Source: an uncultured Lachnospiraceae bacterium
GTDB taxonomy: Bacteria > Bacillota > Clostridia > Lachnospirales > Lachnospiraceae
DNA length: 41,671 nt
Assembly: GCA_947385425.1 (NCBI GenBank)
Contig: CANDKY010000027.1
Location: 1 to 41,671 of the forward strand
Direction: 5' to 3'
In this document: positions 13,361-37,061 of the stretch, piece after piece
Position numbering within the stretch: the stretch's first letter is position 1
How the letters are laid out: the number at the start of each line of letters is the position of its first letter
Notes under the pieces: generated by a model
The model's database searches: none
Told to the model about the DNA's origin: nothing
The model's input: the letters and a program-made list of their open reading frames with translations, nothing else
Position numbers and translations under genes: made by a program

Positions 13361-13428
13361 GCCATTGAAAAGCAGCAAGCCCCATGTTATTATGTAAACA
13401 TATGTCTGTTATGGAGGATTTACCTGGA

Positions 13429-17314: not shown

Positions 17315-18397
17315 ATGAGGACTTATTTAGTAACAGGGGGAGCGGGGTTTATCGGTTCCAATTATATTCATTACATGTTTCGGAAATATGGCGATGCAAT
17401 CCGCATCATTAATGTAGATGCCCTAACCTATGCAGGGAACCTTGAAAACCTGAAGGATTTGGAAAGCAGGGAGAACTATATATTTGTCAAAGCCGATATT
17501 TGTGATAAAGACGCGATAGCAAAGATTTTTGCGGAAAATGAGATTGACCGGGTGGTGCATTTTGCGGCGGAGAGCCATGTGGACAGGAGCATCCGCAATC
17601 CGGAAGTCTTTGTGCAGACAAATGTCCTGGGTACGGCGGTTATGCTCAACTGTGCGAAAGCGGCCTGGGAACTGCCTGACGGCAGCTTTAAAGAGGATAA
17701 GAAATTCCTCCATGTTTCCACGGACGAGGTATATGGTTCGCTGGAAGAGGACGGCGGTTTTTTCTATGAAACAACACCCTACGCGCCCCACAGCCCCTAT
17801 TCGGCAAGCAAGGCAGGGTCGGACATGCTGGTGAAGGCTTACATGGATACTTACCATTTTCCGGCCAATATTACGAACTGCTCTAACAACTACGGGCCAT
17901 ACCAGTTCCCGGAGAAACTGATCCCGCTGATTATCAATAATGCTTTGCACGGAAAGAAGCTTCCCGTGTACGGGGACGGCAGGAACGTGAGAGACTGGCT
18001 GTATGTGGAAGACCATGCGAAAGCGATTGATATGGTACAGGAAGAAGGAAAGCTGTTTGAAACTTACAATGTAGGCGGACACAATGAGAAACAGAATATT
18101 GAAATCATCCGTATTATTCTGGAAACCCTTCAGGAGATGCTGCCGGAGGGCGATCCGAGGAAGAAACTGATAAACGAGGATCTGATCACATATGTGGAAG
18201 ACCGTAAAGGGCATGACCGCAGGTATGCCATTGCACCGGATAAAATAAAAGCCGGAATCGGCTGGGAGCCGGAGACAATGTTTAAGGAGGGAATCCGCCG
18301 GACGATCCAGTGGTACTTTGAGCATGAAGACTGGATGAAAAATGTAACCAGCGGTGATTACCAGAAATATTACGACGAAATGTACACCGCGAAATAA
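17315..18397 (+). CDS. rmlB: dTDP-glucose 4,6-dehydratase
   Basis: A 360-residue extended SDR enzyme, second step of dTDP-L-rhamnose synthesis (dTDP-glucose to dTDP-4-keto-6-deoxyglucose). It has the NAD-binding TGGAGFIG (7-14), the sugar-nucleotide loop AAESHVDRSI, STDEVYG with the catalytic Thr-Asp-Glu, and PYSASK with the Tyr-Lys pair at about 161-166. Near-complete collinearity with the family (NNYGPYQFPEKLIPL, VYGDGRNVRDWLYVEDH) leaves little doubt. AGAGAGGAAG precedes the ATG. It is followed by family D repeats and then rmlA. Confidence 0.97.
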   Translation: MRTYLVTGGAGFIGSNYIHYMFRKYGDAIRIINVDALTYAGNLENLKDLESRENYIFVKADICDKDAIAKIFAENEIDRVVHFAAESHVDRSIRNPEVFVQTNVLGTAVMLNCAKAAWELPDGSFKEDKKFLHVSTDEVYGSLEEDGGFFYETTPYAPHSPYSASKAGSDMLVKAYMDTYHFPANITNCSNNYGPYQFPEKLIPLIINNALHGKKLPVYGDGRNVRDWLYVEDHAKAIDMVQEEGKLFETYNVGGHNEKQNIEIIRIILETLQEMLPEGDPRKKLINEDLITYVEDRKGHDRRYAIAPDKIKAGIGWEPETMFKEGIRRTIQWYFEHEDWMKNVTSGDYQKYYDEMYTAK

Positions 18398-18403
18398 ATA
18401 TAT

Positions 18404-18574
18404 AACCGCCGGAAATGCTTCCATGAGGGTGGGTGTTTGGATGGGAATGGCGGAACTGGAATAAAACAGCCATTGCCAACCAAACGCCCGGAAGGATTTA
18501 CGGACGTGAATACGGCCGGAAATGCTTCCATAAGGGTGGGCGTTTGGGTGGAAATGGCGGAACTGGAATAGGAG
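18404..18574 (+). repeat. Family D palindromic repeats (half unit plus full unit) before rmlA
   Basis: A half unit (about 18404-18463) and a full unit (about 18464-18574). In the full unit GCCATTGCCAACCAAACGCC pairs with GGCGTTTGGGTGGAAATGGC, and an inner arm GGAAGGATTT faces GGAAATGCTTCC. Both end with GCGGAACTGGAATA. At the second end this becomes AATAGGAG, which is the Shine-Dalgarno sequence of rmlA. The same family lies at 24482-24807. Confidence 0.8.
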
Positions 18575-18582
18575 ATAAAGAT

Positions 18583-19452
18583 ATGAAAGGAATTATTCTG
18601 GCAGGGGGGAGCGGCACCAGGCTTTACCCGTTAACGAAAGCAGTATCGAAACAGATTTTGCCGGTATATGATAAACCGATGATATATTATCCGCTGTCAA
18701 CATTGATGCTTGCAGGGATCCGGGAGATAATGATTATCTCTACGCCGAGGGATCTTCCGGCGTTCCGTGATCTGTTCGGTACAGGGGAGCAGTTGGGCCT
18801 TACGCTGGAATATGCGGTACAGGAGCAGCCGAGAGGACTGGCGGATGCATTTCTGATCGGGGCGGATTTTATAGGCGGCGATCGCGTGGCACTGGTGCTG
18901 GGAGATAATATTTTTTATGGACAGAGTTTTTCCAGGGTGCTGCGGGAGGTGGCTTCCAGGGAGAAGGGGGCAACTATTTTCGGTTATTATGTAAGAGATC
19001 CGCGGGAATACGGCGTTGTGGAATTTGATGAAAGCGGGAGGGCTCTTTCCATAGAAGAAAAACCGGAAAACCCGAAGAGCAATTATGCCGTACCCGGATT
19101 ATATTTTTATGACAATGATGTGGTGGAAATTGCGAGGAATGTAAAACCGTCCAAACGGGGCGAGATAGAGATAACGAGTATCAACAATGAATATCTGAGC
19201 CGTGGGAACCTGATGGTTGAGACATTGGGCAGAGGATTCGCATGGCTGGATACGGGAAGCCATGATTCTTTGCTGGATGCATCGGATTTTGTGGCGGCAT
19301 TCCAGAAACGGCAGGGGCTTTATATCTCCTGCATTGAGGAAATTGCTTATAAGAGAGGTTTCATTACAAAGGAGCAGCTTCTTAAGCTGGCGGAACCGTT
19401 GATGAAAACAAATTATGGAAAATATCTGGTAGAGGTTGCGAATGGGCTCTAA
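18583..19452 (+). CDS. rmlA: Glucose-1-phosphate thymidylyltransferase
   Basis: A 289-residue enzyme, the usual RmlA length, which joins glucose-1-phosphate and dTTP to dTDP-glucose. Signature [13 protein letters not shown] at residues 6-18, the lysine of [25 protein letters not shown] with the metal-binding Asp, and [13 protein letters not shown]. The ATG follows AATAGGAG, which belongs to a family D repeat. The last 11 bases overlap the start of the second GH25 gene, so the two are probably translationally coupled. Confidence 0.97.
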
Positions 19453-20977: not shown

Positions 20978-21289
20978 ACAGCCAGAAACGGCGGGAACGC
21001 AGATAACGGCGAGAGAACCGAAAACGCCAGGAATGCGTATAACGGTGTGGAAGCCGGAAGCGCCAGGAATGCGGATAACGGTGTGGAAGCCGGAAGCGCC
21101 GGGAATGCGGACGACGGTGTGGAAGCCGGAAGCGCCGGGAATACAGATGACGGTTAGACGGTTGGAAATGACCGGAATGCAGGCAACGGCGAGAAAACCG
21201 GAACCGACCGGAATGCGAATAACAGCGCAGGGAGAGGGAATGTTTCAAATGCAGGAAATAAGGAAGGTGCAGGAACCGGCGGTATATAA
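20978..21289 (+). pseudogene. Untranslated continuation of the GH25 repeat tail
   Basis: In the frame of the preceding gene this stretch reads on as NADNGVEAGSAR-like 12-residue units (36-bp repeats), with one more stop, TAG at 21155-21157, before a final TAA at 21287-21289. Codon use and composition match the tail before the TAA at 20975. The simplest reading is a longer ancestral tail (about 616 residues in all) cut by two nonsense changes. Readthrough is possible but not shown. rmlC starts 73 bases later. Confidence 0.7.
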
Positions 21290-21362: not shown

Positions 21363-21920
21363 ATGGGAAAGATAACAGTGGAGACGTGTGAGATAGAAGG
21401 GCTTAAGGTAATTACACCTGCTGTGTTTGGGGATGCCAGGGGCTATTTTATGGAAACGTATAATTACAATGATTTTAAGGCGGCGGGGATTGACCAGGCT
21501 TTTGTGCAGGATAACCAGTCGGCATCGAAAAAAGGAGTGTTGCGAGGGCTGCATTTTCAGAAAAAATTTCCGCAGGCGAAACTGGTGCGTGCAGTCAGCG
21601 GCGAGGTCTATGACGTGGCGGTGGATTTGCGTAAAGGCAGCGCTACTTTCGGGAAATGGTTCGGTGTACTTTTATCCGCGGAAAATAAAAAGCAGTTTTT
21701 TGTCCCGGAAAATTTCGCCCATGGTTTTCTGGTATTGTCGGATTATGCGGAATTTGCGTATAAATGTACGGATTTCTATCACCCGGATGATGAGGGCGGA
21801 ATTTTGTATAATGATCCGGACATTGGCGTAGAGTGGCCGGTTCCCGAAGGAATGGAACTGATTATGTCTGATAAAGATACGAAATGGGGCGGCATTAAGG
21901 AATTTGCCGCGAAAATGTAA
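21363..21920 (+). CDS. rmlC: dTDP-4-dehydrorhamnose 3,5-epimerase
   Basis: A 185-residue cupin enzyme, third step of dTDP-rhamnose synthesis. It shows GDARGYFMETY, the catalytic His64 in VLRGLHFQ, the strand GEVYDVAVDLRKGS, FFVPENFAHGFLVLSD, and CTDFYHPDDEGGI with the conserved Tyr. Length and order are standard. AAGGAG lies 13 bases upstream, a little long. It is followed within about 14 bases by the exporter permease. No rmlD (the last step) is present in the window. Confidence 0.96.
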   Translation: MGKITVETCEIEGLKVITPAVFGDARGYFMETYNYNDFKAAGIDQAFVQDNQSASKKGVLRGLHFQKKFPQAKLVRAVSGEVYDVAVDLRKGSATFGKWFGVLLSAENKKQFFVPENFAHGFLVLSDYAEFAYKCTDFYHPDDEGGILYNDPDIGVEWPVPEGMELIMSDKDTKWGGIKEFAAKM

Positions 21921-21934
21921 AGGGATTGCGGGAG

Positions 21935-23074
21935 ATGAAGACGGCAGGCAAGGCGGCAGGAAAGACGGCCCTTAAGAAGAAAAGAAAAAAAAGGACATCC
22001 AAACAGTCGGTCCGCAGGGCAAAAGGGAAAAGCAGGACAGCGAAGCAGGCAGCATCGAAACAGAAGGCCCTTAAGAAGAATAAGAGAACCGGTATATCGA
22101 AGAAAGCGGCAATGGGTACATTTTATGTCCTTGCCGCTGCTTTGGCAGTTGTGGTAGTGGCACATCATAACCCATTGGCAGACCAGGTGACGGAAACGAT
22201 GAAGAAAGTAATGGCCTGTCTGCTGATAGGATTTACCTGTGTGATATTCGGCGTTTTTTACGACAGGCTCACCGTACTGCCGAAGGAACTGTACCAGAGC
22301 CGCCGGCTTATATGGAAGCTGGCAAAAAATGATTTTAAGAAGCGTTATGCCGGTTCCTATCTCGGTATGGTATGGGCGTTTGTGCAGCCGGTGGTAACTG
22401 TGGTGATGTACTGGATTGTGTTTGACCGGGTGTTTGATACGAGGAGCCAGCTTGTGGCCGGGGGGATAGAGGTGCCCTATGTGCTTTACCTGACGGCAGG
22501 GCTGGTGCCGTGGTTCTATTTTACCGAGGCGCTGACCAACGGGACGATGGCATTGATTGAGTACAATTACCTGGTCAAAAAAGTGGTATTTAAAATCAGT
22601 ATCCTGCCTATTATAAAAGTGATAGCGGCTACGTTTGTCCATGCGTTTTTTGTGGCAGTGCTGTTTATCATTGCCATTGCTTACGGGTATTATCCAAGCA
22701 TTTATACAATTCAGATATTTTATTATAGTTTCTGCGAATTTATCCTTGTGCTGGCTATCAGTTACACAACCTGCGCAGTGGTTGTTTTTTTCAAAGATTT
22801 GCAGCAGATTATAAGTATAGCGCTGCAGATTGGCATGTGGGCAACGCCGATTCTCTGGGATATATCCATGCTTACCGATCGGATGAAACCGATTTTTAAG
22901 CTCAACCCGATGGTATATATCGTGAACGGATTCCGCAGTGCGATCTATGAGCAGGAGTGGTTTTTTGAGCATTTTTATTCGTCTACGTATTTTTGGATAT
23001 TTACAGTGACCATATTCTGCATAGGGTCGTTAATTTTTAAACGTTTGAAAGTGCATTTTGCGGATGTAATGTGA
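21935..23074 (+). CDS. ABC-2 polysaccharide export permease (Wzm/TagG-like) with basic N-terminal tail
   Basis: A 379-residue protein from ATG 21935. Residues 1-57 contain 25 Lys/Arg and no Asp/Glu. Two extra membrane segments follow (about 62-77 and 93-108), then the usual ABC-2 permease of Wzm/TagG exporters from about 120: LIWKLAKNDFKKRYAGS, GMVWAFVQPVVTVVMYWIVF, VPYVLYLTAGLVPW and ATPILWDISML. It exports a lipid-linked polymer across the membrane with the ATPase encoded next. Typical family members start near residue 115 of this one, so the tail and two segments are an added module. The tail would lie in the cytoplasm if the two added segments form a hairpin. Confidence 0.88.
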   Translation: MKTAGKAAGKTALKKKRKKRTSKQSVRRAKGKSRTAKQAASKQKALKKNKRTGISKKAAMGTFYVLAAALAVVVVAHHNPLADQVTETMKKVMACLLIGFTCVIFGVFYDRLTVLPKELYQSRRLIWKLAKNDFKKRYAGSYLGMVWAFVQPVVTVVMYWIVFDRVFDTRSQLVAGGIEVPYVLYLTAGLVPWFYFTEALTNGTMALIEYNYLVKKVVFKISILPIIKVIAATFVHAFFVAVLFIIAIAYGYYPSIYTIQIFYYSFCEFILVLAISYTTCAVVVFFKDLQQIISIALQIGMWATPILWDISMLTDRMKPIFKLNPMVYIVNGFRSAIYEQEWFFEHFYSSTYFWIFTVTIFCIGSLIFKRLKVHFADVM

Positions 23075-23161
23075 TATTTGGACGCAGGTTGTTTGTGTTT
23101 ATGCTGTTTCTGGCTGTACCAAATGGTGTGCGGGAGGATAAGCCGGTTTCGGAAAACGGGG

Positions 23162-24478
23162 ATGGGGAAATTGAAGGTGGAAGAAAAGAAGATAGCGATT
23201 CAGGTCACGGATTTGGACAAAGTATATAAACTGTATGAGAAACCTTCCGACCGGATGAAGGAAGCATTGGGGCTTTCCAGGCAGAAGCGGTATAAGGAAC
23301 ATCATGCCCTGAGCAAGGTCAATATGGCAGTGCATCAGGGGGAAACGGTAGGCATTATCGGGACAAATGGTTCGGGAAAATCTACGATCTTGAAGATTAT
23401 TACCGGAGTGCTGAACCCGACGGCGGGGGAGGTGACGGTAAACGGGCGCATATCAGCTCTTTTGGAGCTGGGGGCCGGATTTAATATGGAATATAACGGA
23501 ATCGAAAATATATATCTGAACGGGACGATGATCGGCTTTTCCGAGAAGGAGATAGAAAGTAAGATGGAATCTATCCTGGAGTTTGCGGATATCGGGGATT
23601 ACGTTTATCAGCCGGTAAAGACTTATTCCAGCGGTATGTTTGTGCGTCTGGCTTTTGCGGTGGCAATCAATATTGAACCGGAAATTTTGATTGTAGATGA
23701 GGCTTTGTCCGTAGGGGATGTTTTTTTCCAGGCGAAATGTTACCATAAATTTGAGGAATTCAAGAGGATGGGCAAGACAATCCTTTTTGTCAGCCATGAT
23801 TTGAGCAGCATCAGCAAGTACTGCGACAGAGTGGTGCTGCTCAACCAGGGGATAAAGCTGGGGGAAGGGACACCCAGGGAAATGATAGATATTTATAAGA
23901 GGGTGCTGGTAGGGCAATATACCGTGCCGGATGAGGATACGGAAAACCTACTGCACGACAGGGAACTGACCGAGGCGGCCGCAGGCAGAAACGCGGATAA
24001 ACGGGAAAACCCGGCGGGGGTAAATCCGGAACTTTTGGAGTATGGTACGAACGCGGCGAGAATTACGGAATATTTTATTACGGATGAGGCGGGGGTACAT
24101 ACCACGGCAGTCATTAAAGGGCAGGAATTTACGCTTCATATGAAAGTGGAGTTTATGGAGGACATCCCGGCCCCCATCTTTGCCTTTACAATAAAAAACA
24201 GTAAAGGGACGGAAATCACCGGAACAAACACGATGGTGGAAAAGGCTTTCCTGGAATCGGTGAAAACCGGTGAAAAAAAGGAAATCACGTTCCGGCAGAA
24301 AATGAGCCTGCAGGGAGGGGAATATCTGCTGTCATTAGGCGTGACAGGGTATGAACAGGATCTTTTCCAGGTATACCACAGGCTGTATGATGTACTGAAC
24401 CTGACAGTAATATCGGACAAGGATACCGTGGGGTATTATGACATGGACAGTGTGGTGCAGGTGGAGCAGATTTTATAA
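23162..24478 (+). CDS. ABC polysaccharide export ATPase (Wzt-like) with C-terminal glycan-binding-type domain
   Basis: A 438-residue ATPase from ATG 23162. The start is uncertain: no clear ribosome binding site, and the open frame extends back to a TTG at 23078. Walker A GTNGSGKST (67-75), signature YSSGM (155-159), Walker B ILIVDE (175-180) and switch His212 are all intact. About residues 300-438 (AARITEYFITDEAGVHTTAV, then a run of beta strands with FAFTIKNSKGTEITGTNT) match the layout of Wzt C-terminal domains, which bind the capped end of the polymer in E. coli O8/O9a-type export. TagH proteins usually lack this, so recognition of a modified chain end is likely here. Confidence 0.88.
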   Translation: MGKLKVEEKKIAIQVTDLDKVYKLYEKPSDRMKEALGLSRQKRYKEHHALSKVNMAVHQGETVGIIGTNGSGKSTILKIITGVLNPTAGEVTVNGRISALLELGAGFNMEYNGIENIYLNGTMIGFSEKEIESKMESILEFADIGDYVYQPVKTYSSGMFVRLAFAVAINIEPEILIVDEALSVGDVFFQAKCYHKFEEFKRMGKTILFVSHDLSSISKYCDRVVLLNQGIKLGEGTPREMIDIYKRVLVGQYTVPDEDTENLLHDRELTEAAAGRNADKRENPAGVNPELLEYGTNAARITEYFITDEAGVHTTAVIKGQEFTLHMKVEFMEDIPAPIFAFTIKNSKGTEITGTNTMVEKAFLESVKTGEKKEITFRQKMSLQGGEYLLSLGVTGYEQDLFQVYHRLYDVLNLTVISDKDTVGYYDMDSVVQVEQIL

Positions 24479-24481
24479 AAA

Positions 24482-24807
24482 AACAGCATCTGCCCGAAGA
24501 GAACCCCAGAGGAATAATTGGCCAGTATTTCGGACAATTATTTCTCTGCCGGGCGAGGGTGCTCTTCGGGTGGATGCGGAACTGGAATAAAAAAACAGCA
24601 TTTATTGAAAGAATGCCCGGAAGGATTTCAGGACGCAAGCGCGGCCGGAAATTCTTCCAGGGAGGGGGCATTCTTTCGATAGATGCGGAACTGGAATAAA
24701 AAACAGCATTTATTGAAAGAATGCCCGGAAGGATTTCAGGACGCAAGCGCGGCCGGAAATTCTTCCAGGGAGAGGGCATTCTTTCGATAAATGCGGAACT
24801 GGAATAG
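24482..24807 (+). repeat. Three tandem family D palindromic units before the methyltransferase gene
   Basis: Units of about 110 bp start near 24482, 24594 and 24705; the second and third are nearly identical and the first is diverged. In each, the outer arms pair: GCATCTGCCCGAAGAG with CTCTTCGGGTGGATGC in unit 1, GCATTTATTGAAAGAATGCC with GGCATTCTTTCGATAGATGC in unit 2. Each ends GCGGAACTGGAATA. The last end supplies GGAG before ATG 24819. Unit 1 also serves as a possible terminator after the ATPase gene. Confidence 0.85.
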
Positions 24808-24818
24808 GAGAAACCGGT

Positions 24819-26906
24819 ATGGCAGAGTTGGTAGGGAAGATCACACTTGATTACAAACATTATCCGGGGGAGGATTTCTATTGTGACGGAGACGTAGAAG
24901 ACGAGCTGTTAGAGATCGTGAAGAAATATCCTTCTGCAGAATACCAGAGAATCATCGAGGAGCGTGCCAGTTGGCCGGTTCTCTATCATCTGTCGCCCCT
25001 GCGGGAAAATATTGTGGATTGGATCCCGATGGACAAGGATGCAAAAGTACTGGAAATCGGTGCAGGGTGCGGGGCAATTACGGGAAAGCTGTCGGAGAAG
25101 GCCGGGGAAGTTGTCTGCGTGGAGCTCTCCAAAAAAAGAAGCCTGATCAATGCCTGGCGCCATCAGGAGTGTGGGAATGTAACAATACATGTGGGGAACT
25201 TTAAGGATGTGGAGCCGGAGCTTCCGGATGACTTTGATTTTATCTTTTTTATCGGGGTCTTTGAGTATGGGCAGAGTTATATCAATACAAAAGATCCTTA
25301 TGGGGATTGGCTGAGGATGATGCGCGGGCATTTAAAAACCGGGGGAAGGATCGTCATTGCCATAGAAAACAGGCTGGGGCTGAAATATTTTGCAGGATGC
25401 AGGGAAGACCATCTGGGGACATTTTTTTCAGGAATTGAAGATTATGTCCATGGGGGAGGCGTGCGTACTTTTGCAAAGAGCAGGCTGGAGCAGATGTTTA
25501 AGGAAAACGGTATGGTAGAATATTCCTTTTATTACCCTTACCCCGATTACAAATTTATGACGGCGGTTTATTCCGACGGACGCCTGCCCAAACAGGGTGA
25601 GCTGTATGATAACCTGAGGAATTTTGATCGGGACAGGGTACTGCTGTTTGACGAAAAGCAGGTGTATGACGGGCTTGTGAAGGACGGGCTGTTCCCGGTT
25701 TTTTCCAATTCCTTTGTTGCGGTGATTGGGAGGGGCTTTGATATCAAATATGCGAAATATTCCAACGACCGTGCGCCGGAGTATGCCGTCCGGACGGAAA
25801 TCAGCGACAAGGGCGGAAGGCGTGTAGTGAAGAAAAGGGCGCTGACACAGGAGGCCGGGGAACATATCGGGAGTATGAGGACGGCATATAAGGATCTGCA
25901 AGAACGGTTTGCAGGCAGTAAGATAGAAGTGAATGAATGCAGCCTTGACCATGGGGGAAGGAGCGCCGCTTTTGAGTATGTGGAAGGGGTAACATTGGCG
26001 GAGATTCTTGACGGCTATCTGGAGAGGGAGGATATAGCCGGTTTCCAGGATATTTTTGACGAATATGTGGAAAGGATTTCCTGGAAAGAGGATATGCCGG
26101 TGGCAGATTATGATTTGATTTTTTCCAATATTTTGCTTCCCCTGGCGGCGGAGGGGGAAGATTATTCGGAAACAGGTGCAGTGAAGGAAGCGGTATGGAC
26201 TATTATAGATTATGAGTGGACGTTCGGAAAGCCGATGGCGGCGAAAGAGATTGCATTCCGTGCAATTTATTGCTATATTTTGGAAAATGATAAGAGAAAA
26301 AAGCTGGATACCGGTCTGCTGCTTGAAAAACTGGGCCTGACGAAGCAGGAAATGGATGCTTACCGTCAGCAGGAGATGGAGTTCCAGAAGTTTGTGACCG
26401 GGAACCGCAAGTCCATGGGGGAAATGAGGGAAGCGATTGGGAACCATGTGGCGGAACCTTTAAAGCGGCTGATCAAAACGGAGGATTCTTCCGCGAAGGA
26501 ATGGGTGCAGGTGTATGAGGACAAAGGGGAAGGGTGCAGCGAAGAGGATTCCTACTTTGTAGCAGATGCTTATGAAGAGGAAAACAGGATGCATTTTACG
26601 CTGTCCGTGAACGGGGATGTCCATCTGGTGCGTATTGATCCGGCGATGGATTATTGTGTAGTCAAAGTGGAGGAATTGTTATTTAACGGGGAGAAGGTAG
26701 AGCCGGATCGGAAAAAGGTGGTAACAAACGGGAGAAGGATGCAGAACGGAAGTTATGTATTTGCCACAGAGGATCCCAATATCAATATTAAACTGGAGGA
26801 TCTGGCAAGGAAGTCGAAGAATACATTGGAGATACGGATGAAAATCGTAAGGCTTCCGGCGGATATCGCACAGGATATGGCGGGGGCGGTGCGGAAAGTC
26901 TGGTAG
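24819..26906 (+). CDS. Fused SAM methyltransferase and kinase-like protein (WbdD-like arrangement)
   Basis: A 695-residue cytoplasmic protein. Residues about 50-240 are a class I methyltransferase: motif I VLEIGAGCGAITGKL (77-91), acidic VCVELSKKR after it, and DFDFIFFIGVFEY as motif IV. Residues about 315-530 look like a small-molecule/protein kinase fold: RRVVKKRAL (candidate ATP lysine 338/339), a hinge-like AAFEYVEGVTL, VADYDLIFSNILL with Asp432 and Asn437 at the D+5 spacing of a kinase catalytic loop, and TIIDYEW with Asp464 as the metal-binding Asp. A beta-rich C-terminal domain follows (about 580-690). E. coli WbdD has the same order of methyltransferase then kinase and caps O-antigen ends. 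The kinase part is my inference; a degenerate or unrelated domain is possible. Confidence 0.7.
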   Translation: MAELVGKITLDYKHYPGEDFYCDGDVEDELLEIVKKYPSAEYQRIIEERASWPVLYHLSPLRENIVDWIPMDKDAKVLEIGAGCGAITGKLSEKAGEVVCVELSKKRSLINAWRHQECGNVTIHVGNFKDVEPELPDDFDFIFFIGVFEYGQSYINTKDPYGDWLRMMRGHLKTGGRIVIAIENRLGLKYFAGCREDHLGTFFSGIEDYVHGGGVRTFAKSRLEQMFKENGMVEYSFYYPYPDYKFMTAVYSDGRLPKQGELYDNLRNFDRDRVLLFDEKQVYDGLVKDGLFPVFSNSFVAVIGRGFDIKYAKYSNDRAPEYAVRTEISDKGGRRVVKKRALTQEAGEHIGSMRTAYKDLQERFAGSKIEVNECSLDHGGRSAAFEYVEGVTLAEILDGYLEREDIAGFQDIFDEYVERISWKEDMPVADYDLIFSNILLPLAAEGEDYSETGAVKEAVWTIIDYEWTFGKPMAAKEIAFRAIYCYILENDKRKKLDTGLLLEKLGLTKQEMDAYRQQEMEFQKFVTGNRKSMGEMREAIGNHVAEPLKRLIKTEDSSAKEWVQVYEDKGEGCSEEDSYFVADAYEEENRMHFTLSVNGDVHLVRIDPAMDYCVVKVEELLFNGEKVEPDRKKVVTNGRRMQNGSYVFATEDPNINIKLEDLARKSKNTLEIRMKIVRLPADIAQDMAGAVRKVW

Positions 26907-26957: not shown

Positions 26958-29363
26958 ATGGCAGGGTGGAAGCAATGGGCGAAAAACGGGCTGTTGGCCT
27001 GGCAGAGGCATGGATATAACCGTTTGCTGGAAAAAAAGACAATGGTTTATGACAGTTGGATAAGGCAGGCGGAAGCAGAGCGGTACGGGGATGGCGGCGC
27101 GGAAGAGGGACTGCCGGAGGGCGTGTCAGTGCATCAGGTTCCGTATGAGGCCTGCCGGGATTATCTGACGGGAGGGGCCATGCAGGCAGATAAAGCGGAG
27201 GTGGTATTGTTTGTCGGCGGAAACGGCAGGGCCAGCGATATTGCCCAAAGGGCGGCGGCTGAATATTTTGCGCGGAATGAAGGGATAGAGGTCGCCTATG
27301 GAGATGAGGATGTGATGGGGCCGGACGGGATACGGTATACGCCATGGTTTAAGCCGGACTGGTCACCGGATACATTCTTGTCTTTTTTCTACTTTGGAAA
27401 TGTTTTTGCAGTGCGTATGAGGGCATTGCGGGCATTGACGGAAGCGGAAAAAAACTGGATATGGAAGCCGGAGGGGCTCGCCTGCAATATGGAAATGGGG
27501 ATTTACCGCCTGTGTTATGTGCTGGCAGTGAAATGCGGCGGATTTCTTGCCAGAGTCGGAGATAAAAACAGGGGCGGGGATAAAAACAGAGGCGGAGATA
27601 AAAAAGGAAGCGGAAAAAGGACAGGGTTCGGGTTCCCGATAGGGCATATCGATGAGGTATTGTTCCATGCAAAGGAGAACTGTGAGATAAGGCTGGCCCG
27701 GTCGCAGCCTCTGGACGTGACAGGCAGCCTGGCAGGCAAAAGGACGGACGGCGGGGAATTATCGATAGTGATTCCGTCCAAGGATAATGCCGCGGCATTA
27801 AAGAAATGCATCCATGCAGTGCAGGGGCAGTATGCAAAACGGGAAACGGCATTGGAATGTGAAATTATTGTCGTGGACAACGGAAGCGCGCAGGCAGTGC
27901 GGGAAGAGCTGGCCGGATGGCTGGCGGTACAGGAGGGAGGAATCCATTACCGCTATTTATATCAAAAGATGCCTTTTCATTTTTCAAAGATGTGTAATAT
28001 GGGCGCCGAAGCGGCCGCAGGGGATGTGCTGCTGTTTCTGAATGATGATGTGGAGATGGCGGCGGAAGAGACGACAGGAGACGGCGGGGCGGAACGGAGT
28101 ATGGAAGGCAGTGAAGCGAAGGGGGGAATAAAAGCCTGCGGAGCGGAGAAGAGGACGAAGGCTTGCGGGGCAGGAACGGATGCGCAAGGGCAGGGCTGCC
28201 TGCTGGAGCAGTTGTATGGCAGGGCGAAGCGGGACTATACCGGGGCTGCCGGGGTGAAGCTTTATTATCCGGGCAGCCGGCGGGTGCAGCACGCAGGTGT
28301 GGTGAACCTGCGTTTAGGGCCGGTACACAAGCTGCAGTTTAAGGATGATAATACGGATTATTTTTACGGATGGAACCGGAGGGAGCGCAATGTGGCGGCA
28401 GTGACCGGGGCATGCCTTGCCGTGGAAAAGAGAAAGTACAGGGAGGCGGGCGGTTTTCCGGAGGAACTTCCGGTGGCGTTCAACGATGTTGATTTTTGTT
28501 TTACCCTGTTGGAAAAGGGGTATTATAATGTGGTATTACAGGATGCGGTTGTGTATCATTATGAGTCGATGAGCCGGGGCAATGATGATGACAGGCAGAA
28601 GCTGGAACGGCTTCTGGATGAAAAGGACAGGCTGTACGCAAGGCATCCGCAGATGGCTGGCCGGGATCCCTTTTACCACAAATACCTTGCCGCGGATATG
28701 CTGAGTACGGGATTTGAGCTGAAAGCGGACTATGATGAGAGGCCGCAGGAAGCATGGGGGAAAGTGGCAAAGGAAACGGCCCTTATGGAAAATGCCAGGG
28801 AGGATGCCTGTGTGATGGTGAGCCTGGAATATGCCGGGCCATTCCGGGATTTCCGGGCGGAAGGAGGAACATCCGTAGGGATGGACGGAAGGAAAGAGGA
28901 GTGCCGGAGGGAACCGGTATTCCGGATATGGAAAGCCGGGAAGAAAACCTGCGGCGCAAAAGCGGAGGCCGCTGCCGCGGGCAGGGGCGGGGCATATCTG
29001 CTCCAGGGCTATTCGTTTGTAGCCGGGTCGGATAATGCATGTTATGAGAAATACCTTATTTTCCGGCCGGATGCTACAGCCGCTGCCGGGGAGAAAAGCG
29101 GGGACGGGACGGCGGGGGAATACAGTAAGGAAAGCAGCGCAGAGCGGGGCGGCCGTGTGTTTTCCGTAAAGGCGGAGCCGTTTGTCCGCAAAGATGTGGA
29201 AGGGAATCTGCCGGATCAGGCCAATGTGGGGATGACGGGATTCTGTGTCCTGATTGGAGGGGAGGACTTGCCTCCCGGAGCGTATCAGGTCGGCGTCATG
29301 GCAAGGGATAAATGTTCCGGGCAGAAGCTGTATACATGGACGAACCGGTATCTGACGTGCTAG
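26958..29363 (+). CDS. Large family-2 glycosyltransferase with low-complexity insertions
   Basis: An 801-residue protein with two GT-A-like halves. The N-terminal one (about 1-260) keeps VVLFVGGNG, VAYGDEDVMGPDG and FKPDWSPDTFLS, and the second (about 267-600) is complete: LSIVIPSKDN, IIVVDNGS, FLNDDVEM with D363/D364, VQHAGVV, AVTGACLAVEKRKY, AFNDVDFCFTLLEKG. A C-terminal beta-rich domain (about 630-801) resembles the end of the preceding methyltransferase protein. Two low-complexity inserts interrupt the fold: GDKNRGGDKNRGGDKK near 200-220, and about 50 residues just after the DD motif. It probably adds rhamnose or related sugars to the polymer; donor unknown. The ribosome binding site is weak. 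Confidence 0.8.
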   Translation: MAGWKQWAKNGLLAWQRHGYNRLLEKKTMVYDSWIRQAEAERYGDGGAEEGLPEGVSVHQVPYEACRDYLTGGAMQADKAEVVLFVGGNGRASDIAQRAAAEYFARNEGIEVAYGDEDVMGPDGIRYTPWFKPDWSPDTFLSFFYFGNVFAVRMRALRALTEAEKNWIWKPEGLACNMEMGIYRLCYVLAVKCGGFLARVGDKNRGGDKNRGGDKKGSGKRTGFGFPIGHIDEVLFHAKENCEIRLARSQPLDVTGSLAGKRTDGGELSIVIPSKDNAAALKKCIHAVQGQYAKRETALECEIIVVDNGSAQAVREELAGWLAVQEGGIHYRYLYQKMPFHFSKMCNMGAEAAAGDVLLFLNDDVEMAAEETTGDGGAERSMEGSEAKGGIKACGAEKRTKACGAGTDAQGQGCLLEQLYGRAKRDYTGAAGVKLYYPGSRRVQHAGVVNLRLGPVHKLQFKDDNTDYFYGWNRRERNVAAVTGACLAVEKRKYREAGGFPEELPVAFNDVDFCFTLLEKGYYNVVLQDAVVYHYESMSRGNDDDRQKLERLLDEKDRLYARHPQMAGRDPFYHKYLAADMLSTGFELKADYDERPQEAWGKVAKETALMENAREDACVMVSLEYAGPFRDFRAEGGTSVGMDGRKEECRREPVFRIWKAGKKTCGAKAEAAAAGRGGAYLLQGYSFVAGSDNACYEKYLIFRPDATAAAGEKSGDGTAGEYSKESSAERGGRVFSVKAEPFVRKDVEGNLPDQANVGMTGFCVLIGGEDLPPGAYQVGVMARDKCSGQKLYTWTNRYLTC

Positions 29364-29511: not shown

Positions 29512-31539
29512 ATGGGATTGGGAAAGGCTCCGGAATCGGAGACGGAAAAGAATGCGATTGATTGCAATGGGGCATATGAAAAAGAGTATATTGATTACAA
29601 AGAGGCATATGAAAAGGAGCATATCAAATGTGCGGATCTGGCATCCCGGGTGGCGGAGCTGGATGAGAAGAATGAAGAACTGGCTTTTAAGCTGAACCGT
29701 ATTAAAAACAACCCTCTCTGGAAGCTGAGCGCGCCTTTGCGGAAAGTGATGCATTATATGATCCGGCAGCGGGACAGGCTGAAGAATTGCGGGAACCTGC
29801 GGGGAATATGGGCGAAAGTGAAATATAAGCAGCGCGAACACGAAGCGATGGCGCATTATGGCACAGCCAGCTTTCCCGATGAGGCAAGGCGCAGGGAAGA
29901 GAGCGGTACGGTGTTTCCCAATATGGTGAAAATAAGCATACTGGTGCCTATTTGGAATAACCAGCGGGAATTCCAGATCCAGATGCTGGATTCGGTCATG
30001 GACCAGACGTATGGAAACTGGGAACTGTGCCTGGCGGACGGTTCGGACGAAGCGCACAGTTATATCGGGGACATATGCCGGGAATATGCCGCGCGGGCAG
30101 AGGGCAGGATTGTATATAAGAAGCTGGAAAAAAACGGCGGTATTGCCGGGAACACAAACGAATGCCTGAAATTGGCAACCGGGGAATACATCGGGTTGTT
30201 CGACCAGGATGATATTCTGCATCCGTCGGTTTTGTTTGAATATGTGAAGGCAATCAATGAGCAGGGGGCGGATTACCTTTATTGTGACGAGACTACTTTT
30301 AAGAACAATGATATCAATAAGATGCTGACCATGCATTTCAAGCCGGATTATGCGGTGGACAATCTGCGGGCCAATAATTATATCTGCCATTTCAGCGTAT
30401 TCCACAGGCATTTGCTGGACGGGGACGAGCTGTTCCGGGCGAAGTACGACGGGAGCCAGGATCATGATATGATTCTGCGGCTGACTGACCGTGCGGAAAA
30501 AATCGTCCATGTGCCGAGGCTGATGTATTACTGGCGCTCCCATGCGGGCAGTGTGGCCAGCGGCATCGAGGCGAAGCCCTATGCGGTGGATGCGGCGAAA
30601 GGCGCGGTGGCGGAACATCTGCGCAAGCATGGGTATGAGCATTTCCGCATTACCAGCACGCGGGCTTTTGAGACGATTTTTAAAATCAGTTACCAGATTA
30701 TCGGGAATCCGAAGATATCCATTGTGATTGCCAATAAGGATCACGAGACGGATCTGCGCAGGTGCATTACTTCCATATTGGAAAGATCAACCTATGATAA
30801 TTATGAAATTATCATAGTGGAGAATAACAGCGAAACGCAGGAGATATGGAAGTATTACGGGGAATTGAAGGAAAACGGGCGGGTGAAGCTGGTGAAATAT
30901 GAGGGCAGTTTTAATTATTCTGCGGTGAACAACCTTGGCGTCAGGGAGGCCCAGGGGGAATATATCCTGCTGTTAAATAACGATACGCAGGTGATTACGG
31001 TGAATTGGATGGAAGAGCTCCTGATGTATGCGCAGCGGGAAGATGTGGGCGCCGTAGGGGCAAAGCTTTATTATGGAAACAGGACGATCCAGCATGCCGG
31101 GGTAGTGCTGGCCCTGGGGGCGCACCGGACGGCGGGGCACAGCCATTACGGGCAGCACAGGGAGAACCTGGGGTATATGGGGCGGCTTTGCTATGCTCAG
31201 GATGTGTCGGCGGTGACGGGGGCATGTCTGATGGTTTCGAAAGAGCTGTTTTTAAAGGCAGGAGGGCTGGATGAGTCCTTTGCGGTTTCGCTGAACGATG
31301 TGGATTTCTGCTTAAAGCTGCGGGAAATGGGGTATTTGAACGTGTTTACGCCCTTTGCGGAACTGTATCATTTTGAGTCGGTATCGAGAGGGCTGGATGA
31401 TCAGGGGGAGAAGGCTGAAAGGTATGAGGAAGAGTCGGAGCGGTTCCGGGTGAAGTGGAGAGAGGTATTGGAGAAAGGGGATCCTTATTATAATCCGAAT
31501 TTCTCTTTGGACAGGAGTGATTTTTCTTTGCGGGTGTAG
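29512..31539 (+). CDS. Bifunctional family-2 glycosyltransferase
   Basis: A 675-residue protein. Residues 1-70 form a short coiled coil with an EAYEKEHIKCADLASRV repeat. A first GT-A domain (about 140-390) has ISILVPIWNN and LFDQDDILHPS with D231-Q-D-D; a second (about 400-650) has ISIVIANKDHE, IIIVENNSE, LLLNNDTQV with D491, IQHAGVVLALG, AVTGACLMVSKELF and LNDVDFCLKLREMG. Two complete domains suggest two linkages are made in turn, as in rhamnan and galactan polymerases. GAGGAGG precedes the ATG. It closes the upstream block of the cluster; a foreign-looking cassette follows. Confidence 0.88.
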   Translation: MGLGKAPESETEKNAIDCNGAYEKEYIDYKEAYEKEHIKCADLASRVAELDEKNEELAFKLNRIKNNPLWKLSAPLRKVMHYMIRQRDRLKNCGNLRGIWAKVKYKQREHEAMAHYGTASFPDEARRREESGTVFPNMVKISILVPIWNNQREFQIQMLDSVMDQTYGNWELCLADGSDEAHSYIGDICREYAARAEGRIVYKKLEKNGGIAGNTNECLKLATGEYIGLFDQDDILHPSVLFEYVKAINEQGADYLYCDETTFKNNDINKMLTMHFKPDYAVDNLRANNYICHFSVFHRHLLDGDELFRAKYDGSQDHDMILRLTDRAEKIVHVPRLMYYWRSHAGSVASGIEAKPYAVDAAKGAVAEHLRKHGYEHFRITSTRAFETIFKISYQIIGNPKISIVIANKDHETDLRRCITSILERSTYDNYEIIIVENNSETQEIWKYYGELKENGRVKLVKYEGSFNYSAVNNLGVREAQGEYILLLNNDTQVITVNWMEELLMYAQREDVGAVGAKLYYGNRTIQHAGVVLALGAHRTAGHSHYGQHRENLGYMGRLCYAQDVSAVTGACLMVSKELFLKAGGLDESFAVSLNDVDFCLKLREMGYLNVFTPFAELYHFESVSRGLDDQGEKAERYEEESERFRVKWREVLEKGDPYYNPNFSLDRSDFSLRV

Positions 31540-33373: not shown

Positions 33374-35095
33374 ATGGGTTACATGGATGAATTTAACTTT
33401 TGGTTAAGCGATTCGTACTTCGATGAAGGCACGAAGAAAGAACTCGAGGCAATCAAAGGCGATGAGAAGGAAATCGAAGACCGCTTCTATAAAGAACTGG
33501 AATTCGGCACGGGAGGCCTGCGCGGCGTGATTGGTGCGGGGACAAACCGTATGAATATTTATACCGTGCGCAAGGCAACGCAGGGGCTGGCGAATTACAT
33601 ACTGAAACAGGGCGGCAGGGAGAAGGGGGTCGCCATTGCCTACGATTCCAGAAGGAAGTCGCCGGAATTTGCGGATGAAGCGGCTCTCTGCCTGGCGGCA
33701 AACGGGATCAAGGCATATGTGTTTGACGAACTTCGCCCGACGCCGGAGCTGTCTTTTGCATTGAGGACGCTGGGATGTATTTCCGGTATTGTTATCACGG
33801 CAAGCCATAACCCGCCGGAATATAACGGTTATAAGGCATACTGGGAGGACGGTGCACAGGTAACGGCGCCGAAGGACAAAGAGATTATTACGGAAGTAAA
33901 AAATGTAACGGATTACCATGAAGTAAAGACCATGGACAAGGAGGAAGCGATCAAGTCCGGGCTTTATCAGGTGATTGGCAAGGAAATAGACGATGCTTAC
34001 ATGGCAGAATTAAAGAAGCAGATCATCCATCCGGAGATCATCAAAGAGATGGCGGATGATATGAAGATTGTGTACTCCCCGTTCAACGGGACAGGGAACA
34101 AACCGGTAAGGCGGATCCTGTCCGAGCTGGGCTTCAAACATGTATATGTGGTGCCGGAGCAGGAAAATCCCGATCCGGATTTCACTACGCTGGATTATCC
34201 GAACCCGGAAGACCCGAAAGCATTTACCCTTGCGTTAAAGCTGGCAAAGGAGAAAAACGCGGATATTGTCCTTGCTACCGATCCGGATGCGGACAGGCTG
34301 GGTATCTATGCTTTGGACACAAAGAGCGGCGAGTATGTTCCGTTTACCGGAAATATGTCAGGGATGCTTATTGCCGAATATATCTTGAGGGAGAGGACGG
34401 CGGAAGGGCTTATGCCTGAGAATCCCGCTTTGGTAACGACAATCGTTACAACCAATATGGCAAAAGCTATCTGCGACGACTATAAAGTAAAATGCATTGA
34501 AGTACTGACCGGCTTTAAATATATCGGCGAGCAGATCAAATGGTTCGAGCAGAGCGGTTCCAACCATTATGTGTTTGGCCTGGAAGAGAGTTACGGATGT
34601 CTGGCAGGAACCCATGCAAGGGATAAGGATGCCGTTGTAGCGGTTATGTGCCTGTGCGAAATGGCGGCATGGTGCAAGAAGAACGGTAAGACCGTCTGGG
34701 ATCAGATGCTGGCATTGTACGAGAAGTACGGCTACTACAAAGAGACACAGTATGCAATTACGCTGAAAGGGATTGAAGGCTCTAAGCAGATCGCGGAGAT
34801 TATGGATAAGCTGAGAAGCAACCCGCCGAAGGAGTTTGGCGATCTGAAAGTAGTGGAAGTAAGGGATTATGACGGCAATAAGGTGGTAAATATGGAAACC
34901 GGTGAGGAGAGGGAGACAGGGCTTCCGAAGTCCAACGTACTTTACTTCGACCTGACCAACGATTCCTGGTGCTGTGCCCGTCCTTCCGGTACGGAACCGA
35001 AGCTGAAATTCTATATGGGCGTTAAGGGAACGAGCCTTGAGGATGCGCAGGCGAAAGTTGAGAAGCTGACAGAGGCTTTGAAAGCCCATATCTAA
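33374..35095 (+). CDS. pgcA: Alpha-phosphoglucomutase (phospho-sugar mutase)
   Basis: A 573-residue alpha-D-phosphohexomutase that interconverts glucose-6-phosphate and glucose-1-phosphate. All four family motifs are present: catalytic serine in ITASHNPPEYNGYK (Ser144), metal loop DPDADRLG (303-310), sugar-binding GLEESYG, and phosphate-binding RPSGTEPKLKFY near the C-terminus. Length and motifs fit Firmicutes PgcA rather than the shorter GlmM. GGAGGAG before the ATG suggests strong translation. It supplies the substrate of RmlA encoded upstream, so its place in a polysaccharide locus makes sense. Phosphomannomutase activity cannot be excluded. Confidence 0.93.
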   Translation: MGYMDEFNFWLSDSYFDEGTKKELEAIKGDEKEIEDRFYKELEFGTGGLRGVIGAGTNRMNIYTVRKATQGLANYILKQGGREKGVAIAYDSRRKSPEFADEAALCLAANGIKAYVFDELRPTPELSFALRTLGCISGIVITASHNPPEYNGYKAYWEDGAQVTAPKDKEIITEVKNVTDYHEVKTMDKEEAIKSGLYQVIGKEIDDAYMAELKKQIIHPEIIKEMADDMKIVYSPFNGTGNKPVRRILSELGFKHVYVVPEQENPDPDFTTLDYPNPEDPKAFTLALKLAKEKNADIVLATDPDADRLGIYALDTKSGEYVPFTGNMSGMLIAEYILRERTAEGLMPENPALVTTIVTTNMAKAICDDYKVKCIEVLTGFKYIGEQIKWFEQSGSNHYVFGLEESYGCLAGTHARDKDAVVAVMCLCEMAAWCKKNGKTVWDQMLALYEKYGYYKETQYAITLKGIEGSKQIAEIMDKLRSNPPKEFGDLKVVEVRDYDGNKVVNMETGEERETGLPKSNVLYFDLTNDSWCCARPSGTEPKLKFYMGVKGTSLEDAQAKVEKLTEALKAHI

Positions 35096-35124: not shown

Positions 35125-35175
35125 ACCTGTGCGGTTGGCGCCCTGTACCCTCCCGGCACCCCTGGTTGCACGGGT
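35125..35175 (+). repeat. Hairpin repeat, family C (copy 3)
   Basis: CCTGTGCGGTTGGCGCCCTG, then CCTCCCGGC and an imperfect right arm GGTTGCACGGGT. It lies 30 bases after the phosphoglucomutase stop and may act as its terminator. Confidence 0.6.
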
Positions 35176-35294
35176 AAAAATCTTTTCAGGGACAGGTATA
35201 AAAAGGCAGATATATAGGCAGAAATACAAAAGCGGAAAGGCAGAAGTAAAATGGGAAAGGCCGGATAGTGGGAAAAGCCAAATAGGGGATAAGG

Positions 35295-35333
35295 AAAAGG
35301 GAAGGGATCCGCAGGACGGGTTTCTTCCCTTTT
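35295..35333 (+). terminator. Stem-loop in the leader of a glycosyltransferase gene
   Basis: AAAAGGGAAG (35295-35304) pairs perfectly with CTTCCCTTTT (35324-35333) around a 19-base loop. The T-run after the stem makes it terminator-like. The 315-base gap between the two genes holds this and the family C repeat, but no gene. Confidence 0.45.
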
Positions 35334-35410
35334 CAGGGATGAGGAAAGCGGCGGGGGACGGGAATGGGACAAAACCGAAACCGGCGGGCATGACAGGGGA
35401 GTGTAGGAAG

Positions 35411-36853
35411 ATGGGACGGAGAATTATAAAAATCAGTAATTTACGCAAGACATATAATTATGTAAGGAAAAACGGTTTAAAGAGTGCATATTATGCGGCC
35501 CTGGAGCGGATAATGAGTGAAAAAGGTTCTTCTTACCATTATAAACAGCCAGGGAAGGATGTGCTGGCGGCGCAGAGGGCGGCAGGGCATAAGTTTTCCT
35601 GCCGGTTCAGTATTCTCGTGCCTGCATATGAGACGGAGGAGGAATACTTCAGGGAAATGATGGATTCCGTACTGGGGCAAAGTTATGGGAACCTGGAGCT
35701 GTTAATCGCGGATGCGAGCCGTTCAGGGCGCGTAAAAAAGATCGTGGACACTTATCAGGACGACAGGATACGTTATATTCCTTTGCCGGAAAACAAAGGA
35801 ATATCGGAAAATACCAATTTTGCGCTGGAGGCGGCAAAGGGGGATTATATCGGGTTGCTGGATCATGATGATGTGCTTACCGGCGATGCGCTGTACAGCA
35901 TGGCAAAAGCGATATACCAGAGGGAAAAAAACGGGGATACGGCATGGCTGCTTTACTCCGATGAAGATAAGGGAAACAGCGGGCTGACGGAATTTTACGA
36001 GCCTCATTTTAAGCCGCCGTTAAATATGGATTTGCTCCTGTCAAATAATTATATCTGCCATTTTCTTGTGATGAAAAGGGAACTGATGCAGGAACTGCGG
36101 TTCCGCGGGGAATATGACGGGGCGCAGGATTACGATTTGATACTCCGGGCTGTCGGCAGGCTGGCGTATGGGGGAGCGGAAAACGCACATCAGGATTTAT
36201 ACGGGGACAGGGAAGGACGGGGAGAAGAAGAGCGGGAAAGCGCAGGGGCAGGCAGTATGGCGGGCAGAAGCGCCGTGATCCATATTCCTAAAGTGTTATA
36301 TCATTGGCGCTGCCATGATTTGTCCACAGCGGAGAATCCGGCGAGTAAATGTTATGCTTATGAGGCCGGGAAACGTGCTTTGGAAGATTTCCTGAAAGAG
36401 AGGGGATGGAAAGGGACGGTCAGCCATACGGAACATTTGGGTTTTTACCGTATTGCGTATAAGGAGAATATCTTTGCACAACGTATGGATGTGGGCGTGG
36501 AAGCAGGGAGGATTCTGGACCACAGGGGGAGGATATGCGGCGGCGCTTATAATGAAAACGGGAGTGTGCTTTATGGGGGGCTGCACCGGGAGTTCGGCGG
36601 ATATATGCACCGGGCGTGCCTGAGGCAGGAAGTGTATGCGGCGGATATACGCTGTATGCGTGTGCGGGAAGAGCTTTGGGGGATTTTTGCGCAGGTATTC
36701 GGGATGCTGTACCGGGAAAATGAAAAAGGCTGGTTTGACTATGCGGGAACGGAGATGCAGGGCGGGGATATTTCGGCGGAACAGGTGCAAAAATGCCTGG
36801 ATTTCGGCAGGCGTGTGCGGAAAGCGGGATATACGGTAGTGTGGTCGCCGTGA
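35411..36853 (+). CDS. Family-2 glycosyltransferase with degenerate second half
   Basis: A 480-residue protein from ATG 35411, preceded by GGGGAG; the open frame extends further upstream but without support. The first GT-A domain (about 65-330) has FSILVPAYETE, LIADASRSG, GLLDHDDVLTGD with D151-H-D-D, YSDEDKGN, FKPPLNMDLLLSNNYICHF and YDGAQDYDLILR. A low-complexity insert with EGRGEEERESAGAG breaks the domain near 260-285. The C-terminal part (about 340-480) follows the outline of a second GT-A domain but lacks its DXD and the AVTGA motif, so it is probably structural. Donor and linkage unknown; a rhamnosyl or similar transferase is likely from context. Confidence 0.82.
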   Translation: MGRRIIKISNLRKTYNYVRKNGLKSAYYAALERIMSEKGSSYHYKQPGKDVLAAQRAAGHKFSCRFSILVPAYETEEEYFREMMDSVLGQSYGNLELLIADASRSGRVKKIVDTYQDDRIRYIPLPENKGISENTNFALEAAKGDYIGLLDHDDVLTGDALYSMAKAIYQREKNGDTAWLLYSDEDKGNSGLTEFYEPHFKPPLNMDLLLSNNYICHFLVMKRELMQELRFRGEYDGAQDYDLILRAVGRLAYGGAENAHQDLYGDREGRGEEERESAGAGSMAGRSAVIHIPKVLYHWRCHDLSTAENPASKCYAYEAGKRALEDFLKERGWKGTVSHTEHLGFYRIAYKENIFAQRMDVGVEAGRILDHRGRICGGAYNENGSVLYGGLHREFGGYMHRACLRQEVYAADIRCMRVREELWGIFAQVFGMLYRENEKGWFDYAGTEMQGGDISAEQVQKCLDFGRRVRKAGYTVVWSP

Positions 36854-37061
36854 ACGTTGGGCGGGACTGCGGGAGCAGGAGATATATTTGCAAAACCGAT
36901 GGCCGGTGCAGGCCGGATAGAGTACTATTGTGCAATCGGGGAAACAGGCTGAAATACAAAACATATACAAAGTGGGGAATGACAGACAGTCAGAAAGAGT
37001 TTTCGGACAGTCTGGGGGCACGGAGTTGGGATTTCAGGGGAAACAGGAGGAGATGGGCCGG

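What the first reader, a model, noticed from the sequence alone, without database searches (positions are those of the whole stretch)
21935..26906. Gram-positive export system with a WbdD-like capping enzyme and a Wzt-type glycan sensor
Seen: a Wzm/TagG permease, a Wzt ATPase with about 140 extra C-terminal beta-rich residues, then a 695-residue protein with a methyltransferase domain followed by a kinase-like domain (D432, N437 at D+5, D464). Established: in E. coli O8/O9a, WbdD (methyltransferase, in O9a also kinase) caps the polymer end and Wzt-C binds the cap to license export. Inference: this locus uses the same logic for a cell-wall glycan in a Clostridia-type cell, where teichoic-acid-type exporters normally lack a cap sensor. 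This may be a poorly described chain-length control system.
Basis: partly seen in the sequence, partly recalled or inferred. Interest (0 to 1): 0.75.

Follow-up and report, generated by a model that had tools for sequence, protein, structure and literature searches.

The report
Predicted capped-glycan exporter in Lachnospiraceae
A bacterium that its relatives place among the Lachnospiraceae carries a sugar-polymer exporter with an end-binding sensor domain next to an enzyme predicted to stop the growing chain with a methyl-phosphate cap; the logic is known from some Gram-negative O antigens, and here it recurs in a Gram-positive family with its parts arranged differently.

Summary
21935-26906 encodes Wzm, Wzt with a Wzt_C domain (E 1.8e-41) and a 695-aa methyltransferase-kinase. 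In 44 kinase domains down to 22% identity only eight columns are invariant, among them K339, D432, N437, D464. For the AlphaFold model (pLDDT 86.7) Foldseek's first PDB match is WbdD, in an alignment long enough to span both domains. By sequence the nearest characterised enzyme is probably the Klebsiella O7 terminator, reached here through a Pseudomonas homologue, rather than WbdD. Gram-positive relatives of the idea are in print: methyl caps in Geobacillus, a phosphate cap on a C. difficile S-layer glycan. New here: the enzyme is in 129 of 250 genomes of the family sample, 125 of them with Wzt_C, and the O7-type protein is split: the coiled coil sits on a separate dual-GT2 protein in 57 of the 58 loci that hold a full one. 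Cap chemistry, sensing and ruler function are inferred. New variant of a known kind.

The parts
17315..18397 (+). rmlB, dTDP-glucose 4,6-dehydratase
   Evidence: TIGR01181 486 bits, cut-off 365
18433..19452 (+). rmlA, glucose-1-phosphate thymidylyltransferase
   Evidence: TIGR01207 492.5 bits, cut-off 361
21363..21920 (+). rmlC, dTDP-4-dehydrorhamnose 3,5-epimerase
   Evidence: PF00908 E 7e-73
21935..23074 (+). Wzm, ABC-2 type glycan permease
   Evidence: PF01061 E 1.9e-14; start
23162..24478 (+). Wzt, ATPase with C-terminal Wzt_C domain (domain at 24038-24445)
   Evidence: PF00005 and PF14524 E 1.8e-41; domain coordinates
24819..26906 (+). cap protein (predicted chain terminator), 695 aa: methyltransferase, kinase, beta domain
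24831..25730 (+). methyltransferase domain, residues 5-304
   Evidence: Pfam; hhalign to five O7-like proteins prob 100, E 2e-64
25743..26423 (+). kinase domain, residues 309-535, with K339, D432, N437, D464
   Evidence: hhalign to five O7-like proteins prob 98.1, E 8e-14
26499..26888 (+). C-terminal beta domain, residues 561-690 (candidate counterpart of the O7 CBM)
   Evidence: strands in the model; sequence match to the Pseudomonas region not significant
26958..29363 (+). gt1, GT2 glycosyltransferase, 801 aa
   Evidence: PF00535 E 2.5e-14
29512..31539 (+). gt2, coiled coil and two GT2 modules (predicted polymerase carrying the candidate ruler)
   Evidence: PF00535, two stretches
29575..29709 (+). 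coiled coil of gt2, about residues 22-66 (limits judged by eye), followed by NPLWKLSAPLRK
   Evidence: best 28-mer starts at residue 39, 0 of 300 shuffles as good; sequence
33374..35095 (+). phosphoglucomutase/phosphomannomutase family protein
   Evidence: PF02878 E 3e-43
35129..36853 (+). GT2 glycosyltransferase
   Evidence: PF00535 E 6e-26
36930..38174 (+). GT2 glycosyltransferase
   Evidence: PF00535 E 4e-26

Best explanation
A capped-glycan, ABC-transporter-dependent assembly line of the Klebsiella O7 type, working in a Gram-positive cell. GT2 enzymes build a rhamnose-containing polymer on a lipid carrier in the cytoplasm. gt2 (coiled coil plus two GT2 modules) is the likely polymerase and carries the candidate ruler. 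The cap protein phosphorylates the non-reducing terminal sugar with its kinase domain and methylates that phosphate with its methyltransferase domain, which stops growth. The Wzt_C domain binds the capped end and licenses export through Wzm. Shown here: domains, conserved catalytic residues, gene order, co-occurrence, homology to O7-like loci. Inferred: the reactions, the acceptor sugar, cap recognition, length control and the final attachment.
For: Domains. Homology: tblastn found two plasmid records. Citrobacter pF217-3 has rml genes, an IS630 transposase, permease, Wzt_C ATPase, MT protein and GTs; Pseudomonas pCC1524 has permease, Wzt_C ATPase and one 1457-aa MT-kinase-GT-GT protein. The Pseudomonas protein has the six MT residues published for O7 (Y28, Y66, G91, G93, E112, Y158) at identical positions and D443 near published D441. 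The window protein aligns with it at 26.6% over 635 columns, E 2e-45, and the gt2 modules match its GT modules at E 4e-40 and 2e-69. Co-occurrence in the family sample: both 125, cap only 4, Wzt_C only 21, neither 100; phylum sample 8, 2, 21, 268. The Wzt frame lies within 400 nt of the cap frame in 116 of 129 loci. L100 holds MT-kinase-beta-coil-GT-GT in one 1389-aa frame. The own genome's second Wzt_C lies beside an FkbM methyltransferase and groups with Wzt_C domains of loci without the MT-kinase (100/100). Published: the O7 D441A variant gave no product in vitro and no exported O antigen in vivo (PMC11231755; section 11 part 1; passages).
Against: No direct chemistry. I did not hold the O7 ORF6 sequence; the link runs through a homologue. 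The kinase profile of the window family did not hit the Citrobacter or Pseudomonas proteins at E 1e-3; only profile-profile comparison did, and in Citrobacter the residue at the D464 position is Glu. The beta-domain match was not significant (prob 1.3). [quoted passage not shown] The gt2 coil is short, about 45 residues. Of the 4 cap genomes without a Wzt_C hit, two fetched stretches show no Wzt (L144, L146), one is cut at an ATPase (L145) and one was not examined. L139 has MT and kinase frames without a strong Wzt, and L141 has an MT beside Wzt without a kinase hit. The co-occurrence p-values ignore shared ancestry.
Confidence: 0.72

Rival explanations
1. The methyltransferase-kinase decorates internal or side-chain sugars; it is not a terminator, and Wzt_C recognises another end group.
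For: Terminal placement rests on homology only. 4 of 129 cap genomes lack a Wzt_C hit.
Against: Of 123 genomes with the strong Wzt_C subtype 122 have the cap protein, and the last (G081) has a divergent MT-kinase frame beside Wzt found by profile. The gene is within 400 nt of Wzt in 116 of 129 loci. The O7 relative is a terminator by experiment (PMC11231755).
Confidence: 0.13
2. The cap is there but its chemistry differs: phosphate alone, a cyclic phosphate as in C. difficile SLCT-11, or a methyltransferase that acts on the sugar. (Overlaps with the best explanation, of which it changes one step.)
For: PMC6254364 (passages) reports a 2,3-cyclophospho-rhamnose end on a glycan of an ABC-exporter locus. 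MT and kinase are separate genes in several relatives.
Against: MT and kinase modules lie in one frame or in neighbouring frames in most loci examined, and the O7 enzyme makes methyl-phosphate.
Confidence: 0.25
3. The glycan decorates an S-layer or other surface protein, not the cell wall. (Concerns only the last step.)
For: The two published Gram-positive precedents read are S-layer glycans (PMC2943079, PMC6254364).
Against: No ligase or S-layer family was named among the 20 window proteins scanned with Pfam. Four LytR-CpsA-Psr genes lie elsewhere in the genome. R. gnavus, another Lachnospiraceae, has a rhamnose polymer that appears linked to peptidoglycan (PMC12413058, passages). None of this is decisive.
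Confidence: 0.25

Closest known systems
Klebsiella pneumoniae O7 terminator ORF6 (PMC11231755; section 11 part 1 and passages read)
   Same: Methyltransferase, unannotated APH-like kinase, CBM-like domain, coiled coil, two GT2 modules; rml, wzm, wzt neighbours. Published residues correspond, through the Pseudomonas homologue, to Y21, Y56, G81, G83, E102, Y150 and D432 of the window protein
   Different: Gram-positive host; terminator and coiled coil are in different genes; the paper's ortholog list names alpha- and gammaproteobacteria and cyanobacteria
WbdD of E. coli O9a (PMC3482155; passages read)
   Same: Methyltransferase then kinase in one chain; first PDB match by Foldseek; its polymerase WbdA is a separate protein
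   Different: Not among the sequence hits shown; WbdD carries a C-terminal coiled coil, this protein a beta domain
WsaE and Wzm/Wzt of Geobacillus stearothermophilus S-layer glycan (PMC2943079; passages read)
   Same: Gram-positive, rhamnan, methylated terminal rhamnose, Wzt predicted to bind it
   Different: Methyl cap only, no kinase; methyltransferase fused to GT modules
C. difficile SLCT-11 S-layer glycan (PMC6254364; passages read)
   Same: Clostridia, rhamnose-rich, ABC exporter, phosphate-modified terminal rhamnose proposed to end the chain
   Different: Cyclic phosphate; no terminator enzyme named in the passages read

Membership tests
Klebsiella O7-type methyltransferase-kinase terminator | homologous methyltransferase with the published SAM-site residues | tested here: met
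   hhalign prob 100, E 2e-64 to the O7-like set; residues
Klebsiella O7-type methyltransferase-kinase terminator | homologous kinase with catalytic Asp and metal ligands | tested here: met
   hhalign prob 98.1, E 8e-14; invariants; the one-sided profile search did not reach L121 or L122
Klebsiella O7-type methyltransferase-kinase terminator | Ig-like CBM after the kinase | tested here: inconclusive
   beta domain present, sequence match not significant
Klebsiella O7-type methyltransferase-kinase terminator | coiled coil in the same protein as the terminator | tested here: not met
   window residues 500-695 no better than shuffles; in 57 of 58 loci the terminator frame ends 2-17 aa after the beta domain and the coil is on gt2; fused in 1
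Klebsiella O7-type methyltransferase-kinase terminator | adds methyl-phosphate to the chain end | not testable with these tools
   needs enzyme assay and NMR
Wzt with cap-binding CBM | Wzt_C domain after the ATPase domain | tested here: met
   PF14524 E 1.8e-41
Wzt with cap-binding CBM | binds the capped chain end | not testable with these tools
   needs a binding assay
WbdD family proper | methyltransferase-then-kinase structure | tested here: met
   Foldseek ranks 1, 3, 7, 15; best E 4.5e-9; 453-568 alignment columns, gaps included, ranges not shown; TM 0.18-0.30, rmsd 15-19
WbdD family proper | sequence homology to WbdD | tested here: inconclusive
   not among the rows shown
WbdD family proper | C-terminal coiled-coil ruler in the same chain | tested here: not met

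The most novel reading that the evidence does not exclude
About half of the genera of this family end a surface glycan with the same methyl-phosphate cap while the backbone varies, and many of them set its length with a ruler built onto the polymerase and tied to the terminator only non-covalently, unlike the capped systems in the papers I read. Terminator, kinase, ruler and polymerase modules have been split and rejoined more than once.
Probability: 0.4. Interest if true: 0.68.

Novelty: new variant of a known kind. Interest (0 to 1): 0.55.

Why it matters
If right, a terminator chemistry known from a few Gram-negative O antigens is common in a large family of gut bacteria, and a shared capped end could be a common surface feature of these commensals. 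The split architecture offers a natural test of whether a coiled-coil ruler must be covalently joined to the terminator.

Tried and rejected

Rows dropped and limits: A1 used 55 of the 80 loci. A2 used 52 of the 69 Wzt references. A3 was a hand-picked 44 and A4 14. In one search the 129 loci are the window, L002-L110 and L124-L142; the last 19 were chosen by me for unusual architecture and the others are best-scoring relatives, so 105 of 129 with MT-kinase-beta is no population rate. In one search, 22 of 80 loci held no full gt2; of the 54 counted as downstream, L074 and L090 are on the other strand; the heptad score passed 4 in 56 of 58. The line of E 1e-37 for the strong Wzt_C subtype was drawn after seeing the data. 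Two of the 12 fetched Wzt_C loci without cap protein are poorly covered (L158 ends soon after Wzt, L148 starts at it). The Wzt_C tree has long branches and an unsettled bootstrap. In the methyltransferase tree the architecture labels come from frame length, and 27 of 52 inner branches are open. That family f1 is Lachnospiraceae is my inference from record titles, which are mostly but not only Lachnospiraceae.

Full report
What is there. 21935-26906 holds three genes on the + strand: Wzm (21935-23074), Wzt (23162-24478, 438 aa) and a 695-aa protein (24819-26906), with rmlB, rmlA and rmlC upstream and GT2 glycosyltransferases downstream. Wzt carries a full Wzt_C domain, E 1.8e-41. The window is contig 27 of a 4.4-Mb draft genome; record titles of the nearest relatives are mostly Lachnospiraceae.

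The kinase. Pfam does not recognise it in the window protein. K339, D432, N437 and D464 are invariant in 56 full-length sequences. In 44 kinase domains down to 22% identity the only invariant columns are R318, T326, K339, D432, N437, D464, E466 and W467 (renumbered by me). A profile of these 44 finds JAK1 first in the PDB, E 1.5e-4, with K339 on the beta3 lysine and D432/N437 on HRDLAARN; 59 of the 60 rows shown, of 67, are protein kinases. The AlphaFold model has mean pLDDT 86.7. Foldseek's first PDB match is WbdD 4ax8, E 4.5e-9 over 513 columns, and WbdD returns at ranks 3, 7 and 15. TM-scores are low (0.18-0.30) and rmsd high (15-19); differently oriented domains would explain that, but I did not test it. 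The structure therefore supports the architecture, not a close match.

The nearest relative. tblastn against plasmids found two records. Citrobacter pF217-3 has rml genes, an IS630 transposase, permease, Wzt_C ATPase, methyltransferase protein and glycosyltransferases; Pseudomonas pCC1524 has permease, Wzt_C ATPase and a 1457-aa protein with methyltransferase and two GT2 modules. That protein has the six methyltransferase residues published for the K. pneumoniae O7 terminator at identical positions, and D443 against published D441 (PMC11231755). Profile-profile comparison links the window family to five such proteins: methyltransferase prob 100, kinase prob 98.1. The plain kinase profile did not reach Citrobacter or Pseudomonas, and Citrobacter has Glu where D464 stands. 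The O7 enzyme puts methyl-phosphate on O3 of a terminal rhamnose, and D441A abolishes this. I read the window protein as O7-type rather than WbdD-type, without having held the O7 sequence itself.

The ruler. In O7 one protein holds terminator, CBM, coiled coil and two GT2 modules. In the window these are two genes: the cap protein ends after its beta domain, and gt2 (29512-31539) starts with a coiled coil before two GT2 modules. Of 80 loci L031-L110, 58 hold a full gt2; in all 58 the coil is on gt2, in 57 gt2 is separate from the cap protein, and in one, L100, fused to it. PMC11231755 already describes polymerase and terminator as separate proteins in other serotypes, but there the coil goes with the terminator. 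Other relatives have MT alone next to kinase-beta (L132-L134), MT alone next to kinase-GT (L126, L127, L135), or all in one frame (L124, L125). With labels by frame length, the methyltransferase tree needs 11 architecture changes against a shuffled mean of 20.1, and L100 sits in a 27-row group of otherwise split loci (94/86, below the tool's starred level). Repeated fission and fusion is the plain reading.

Distribution and the sensor. The cap protein is found in 129 of 250 genomes of the family sample, which count as 250 genera, and in 10 of 299 of the phylum sample; Wzt_C in 146 and 29. In the family sample both occur in 125, cap alone in 4, Wzt_C alone in 21, neither in 100. The best-scoring Wzt_C subtype (line drawn afterwards) is in 123 genomes: 122 have the cap protein, and the last, G081, has a divergent MT-kinase frame beside Wzt. 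Of 12 loci fetched with Wzt_C but no cap protein, none has an MT or kinase profile hit in the stretch held; of ten first neighbours scanned, four are other methyltransferases. The own genome has a second Wzt_C beside an FkbM methyltransferase, which groups with 11 of those 12 and not with the window's (100/100, with long branches). The Wzt_C type thus seems to follow the cap enzyme type, as a sensor should. Among 44 loci mean identity is 84% for the Wzt ATPase domain, 73% Wzt_C, 73% methyltransferase, 57% kinase, 50% beta domain.

Precedents and novelty. A methyl-capped rhamnan with a Wzt predicted to bind it is described in Geobacillus (PMC2943079, passages), and a cyclic phosphate on the terminal rhamnose of a C. 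difficile S-layer glycan was proposed to end the chain (PMC6254364, passages). [quoted passage not shown] The kind is therefore known. None of my paper listings described the O7-type enzyme in Bacillota, but the 2019 census could not be read.

What is inferred. Acceptor sugar, methyl-phosphate product, cap recognition, chain-length control and attachment are inferences. An RmlD-like gene (best of 20 PF04321 matches, E 3.8e-89), four LytR-CpsA-Psr genes, seven Bac_transf genes and one Glycos_transf_4 gene lie elsewhere in the genome; this fits a rhamnose polymer and possible wall attachment but proves neither.

Noticed in passing
window 24484-24806: Between wzt and the cap gene lie three strong palindromic hairpins (-53.9 to -55.1 kcal/mol, z -7.7 to -11), two of them in a 108-bp tandem repeat, separated by a constant piece of about 29 nt. 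A search of the own genome lists 69 matches, many in tandem, some overlapping or on the opposite strand of the same place. In 8 inserts read from 21 places the outer stems differ while pairing is kept (in 10 of the 21 places the constant piece was not found at the mismatch limit used). Looks like a dispersed palindromic repeat family.
   Followed up: partly
L123 (own genome, contig 2, 28000-47900): A second Wzm/Wzt_C locus beside an FkbM methyltransferase and a two-module GT1-family protein, a candidate methyl-only capped system in the same cell.
   Followed up: partly
window 29557-29624: A 33-bp tandem repeat (2.1 copies, 85%) in the coiled-coil part of gt2; if copy number varied it could change coil length. 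Not compared between loci.
   Followed up: no
window 13384-17031 and 19436-20977: Two GH25 lysozyme-type proteins, one with Big_2 and choline-binding repeats and one with a SpaA domain, lie beside or among the rml genes.
   Followed up: no
L085, L087, L097: The gt2 homologue has some 500 extra N-terminal residues (frames of 1211-1222 aa) and lies between wzt and the cap gene.
   Followed up: no
L150:4460-6034: A Mur-ligase family protein is the first neighbour of a Wzt_C ATPase without MT-kinase.
   Followed up: no
window 20828-21214: Tandem repeats of 36/72/108 bp that overlap the end of the GH25/SpaA frame.
   Followed up: no
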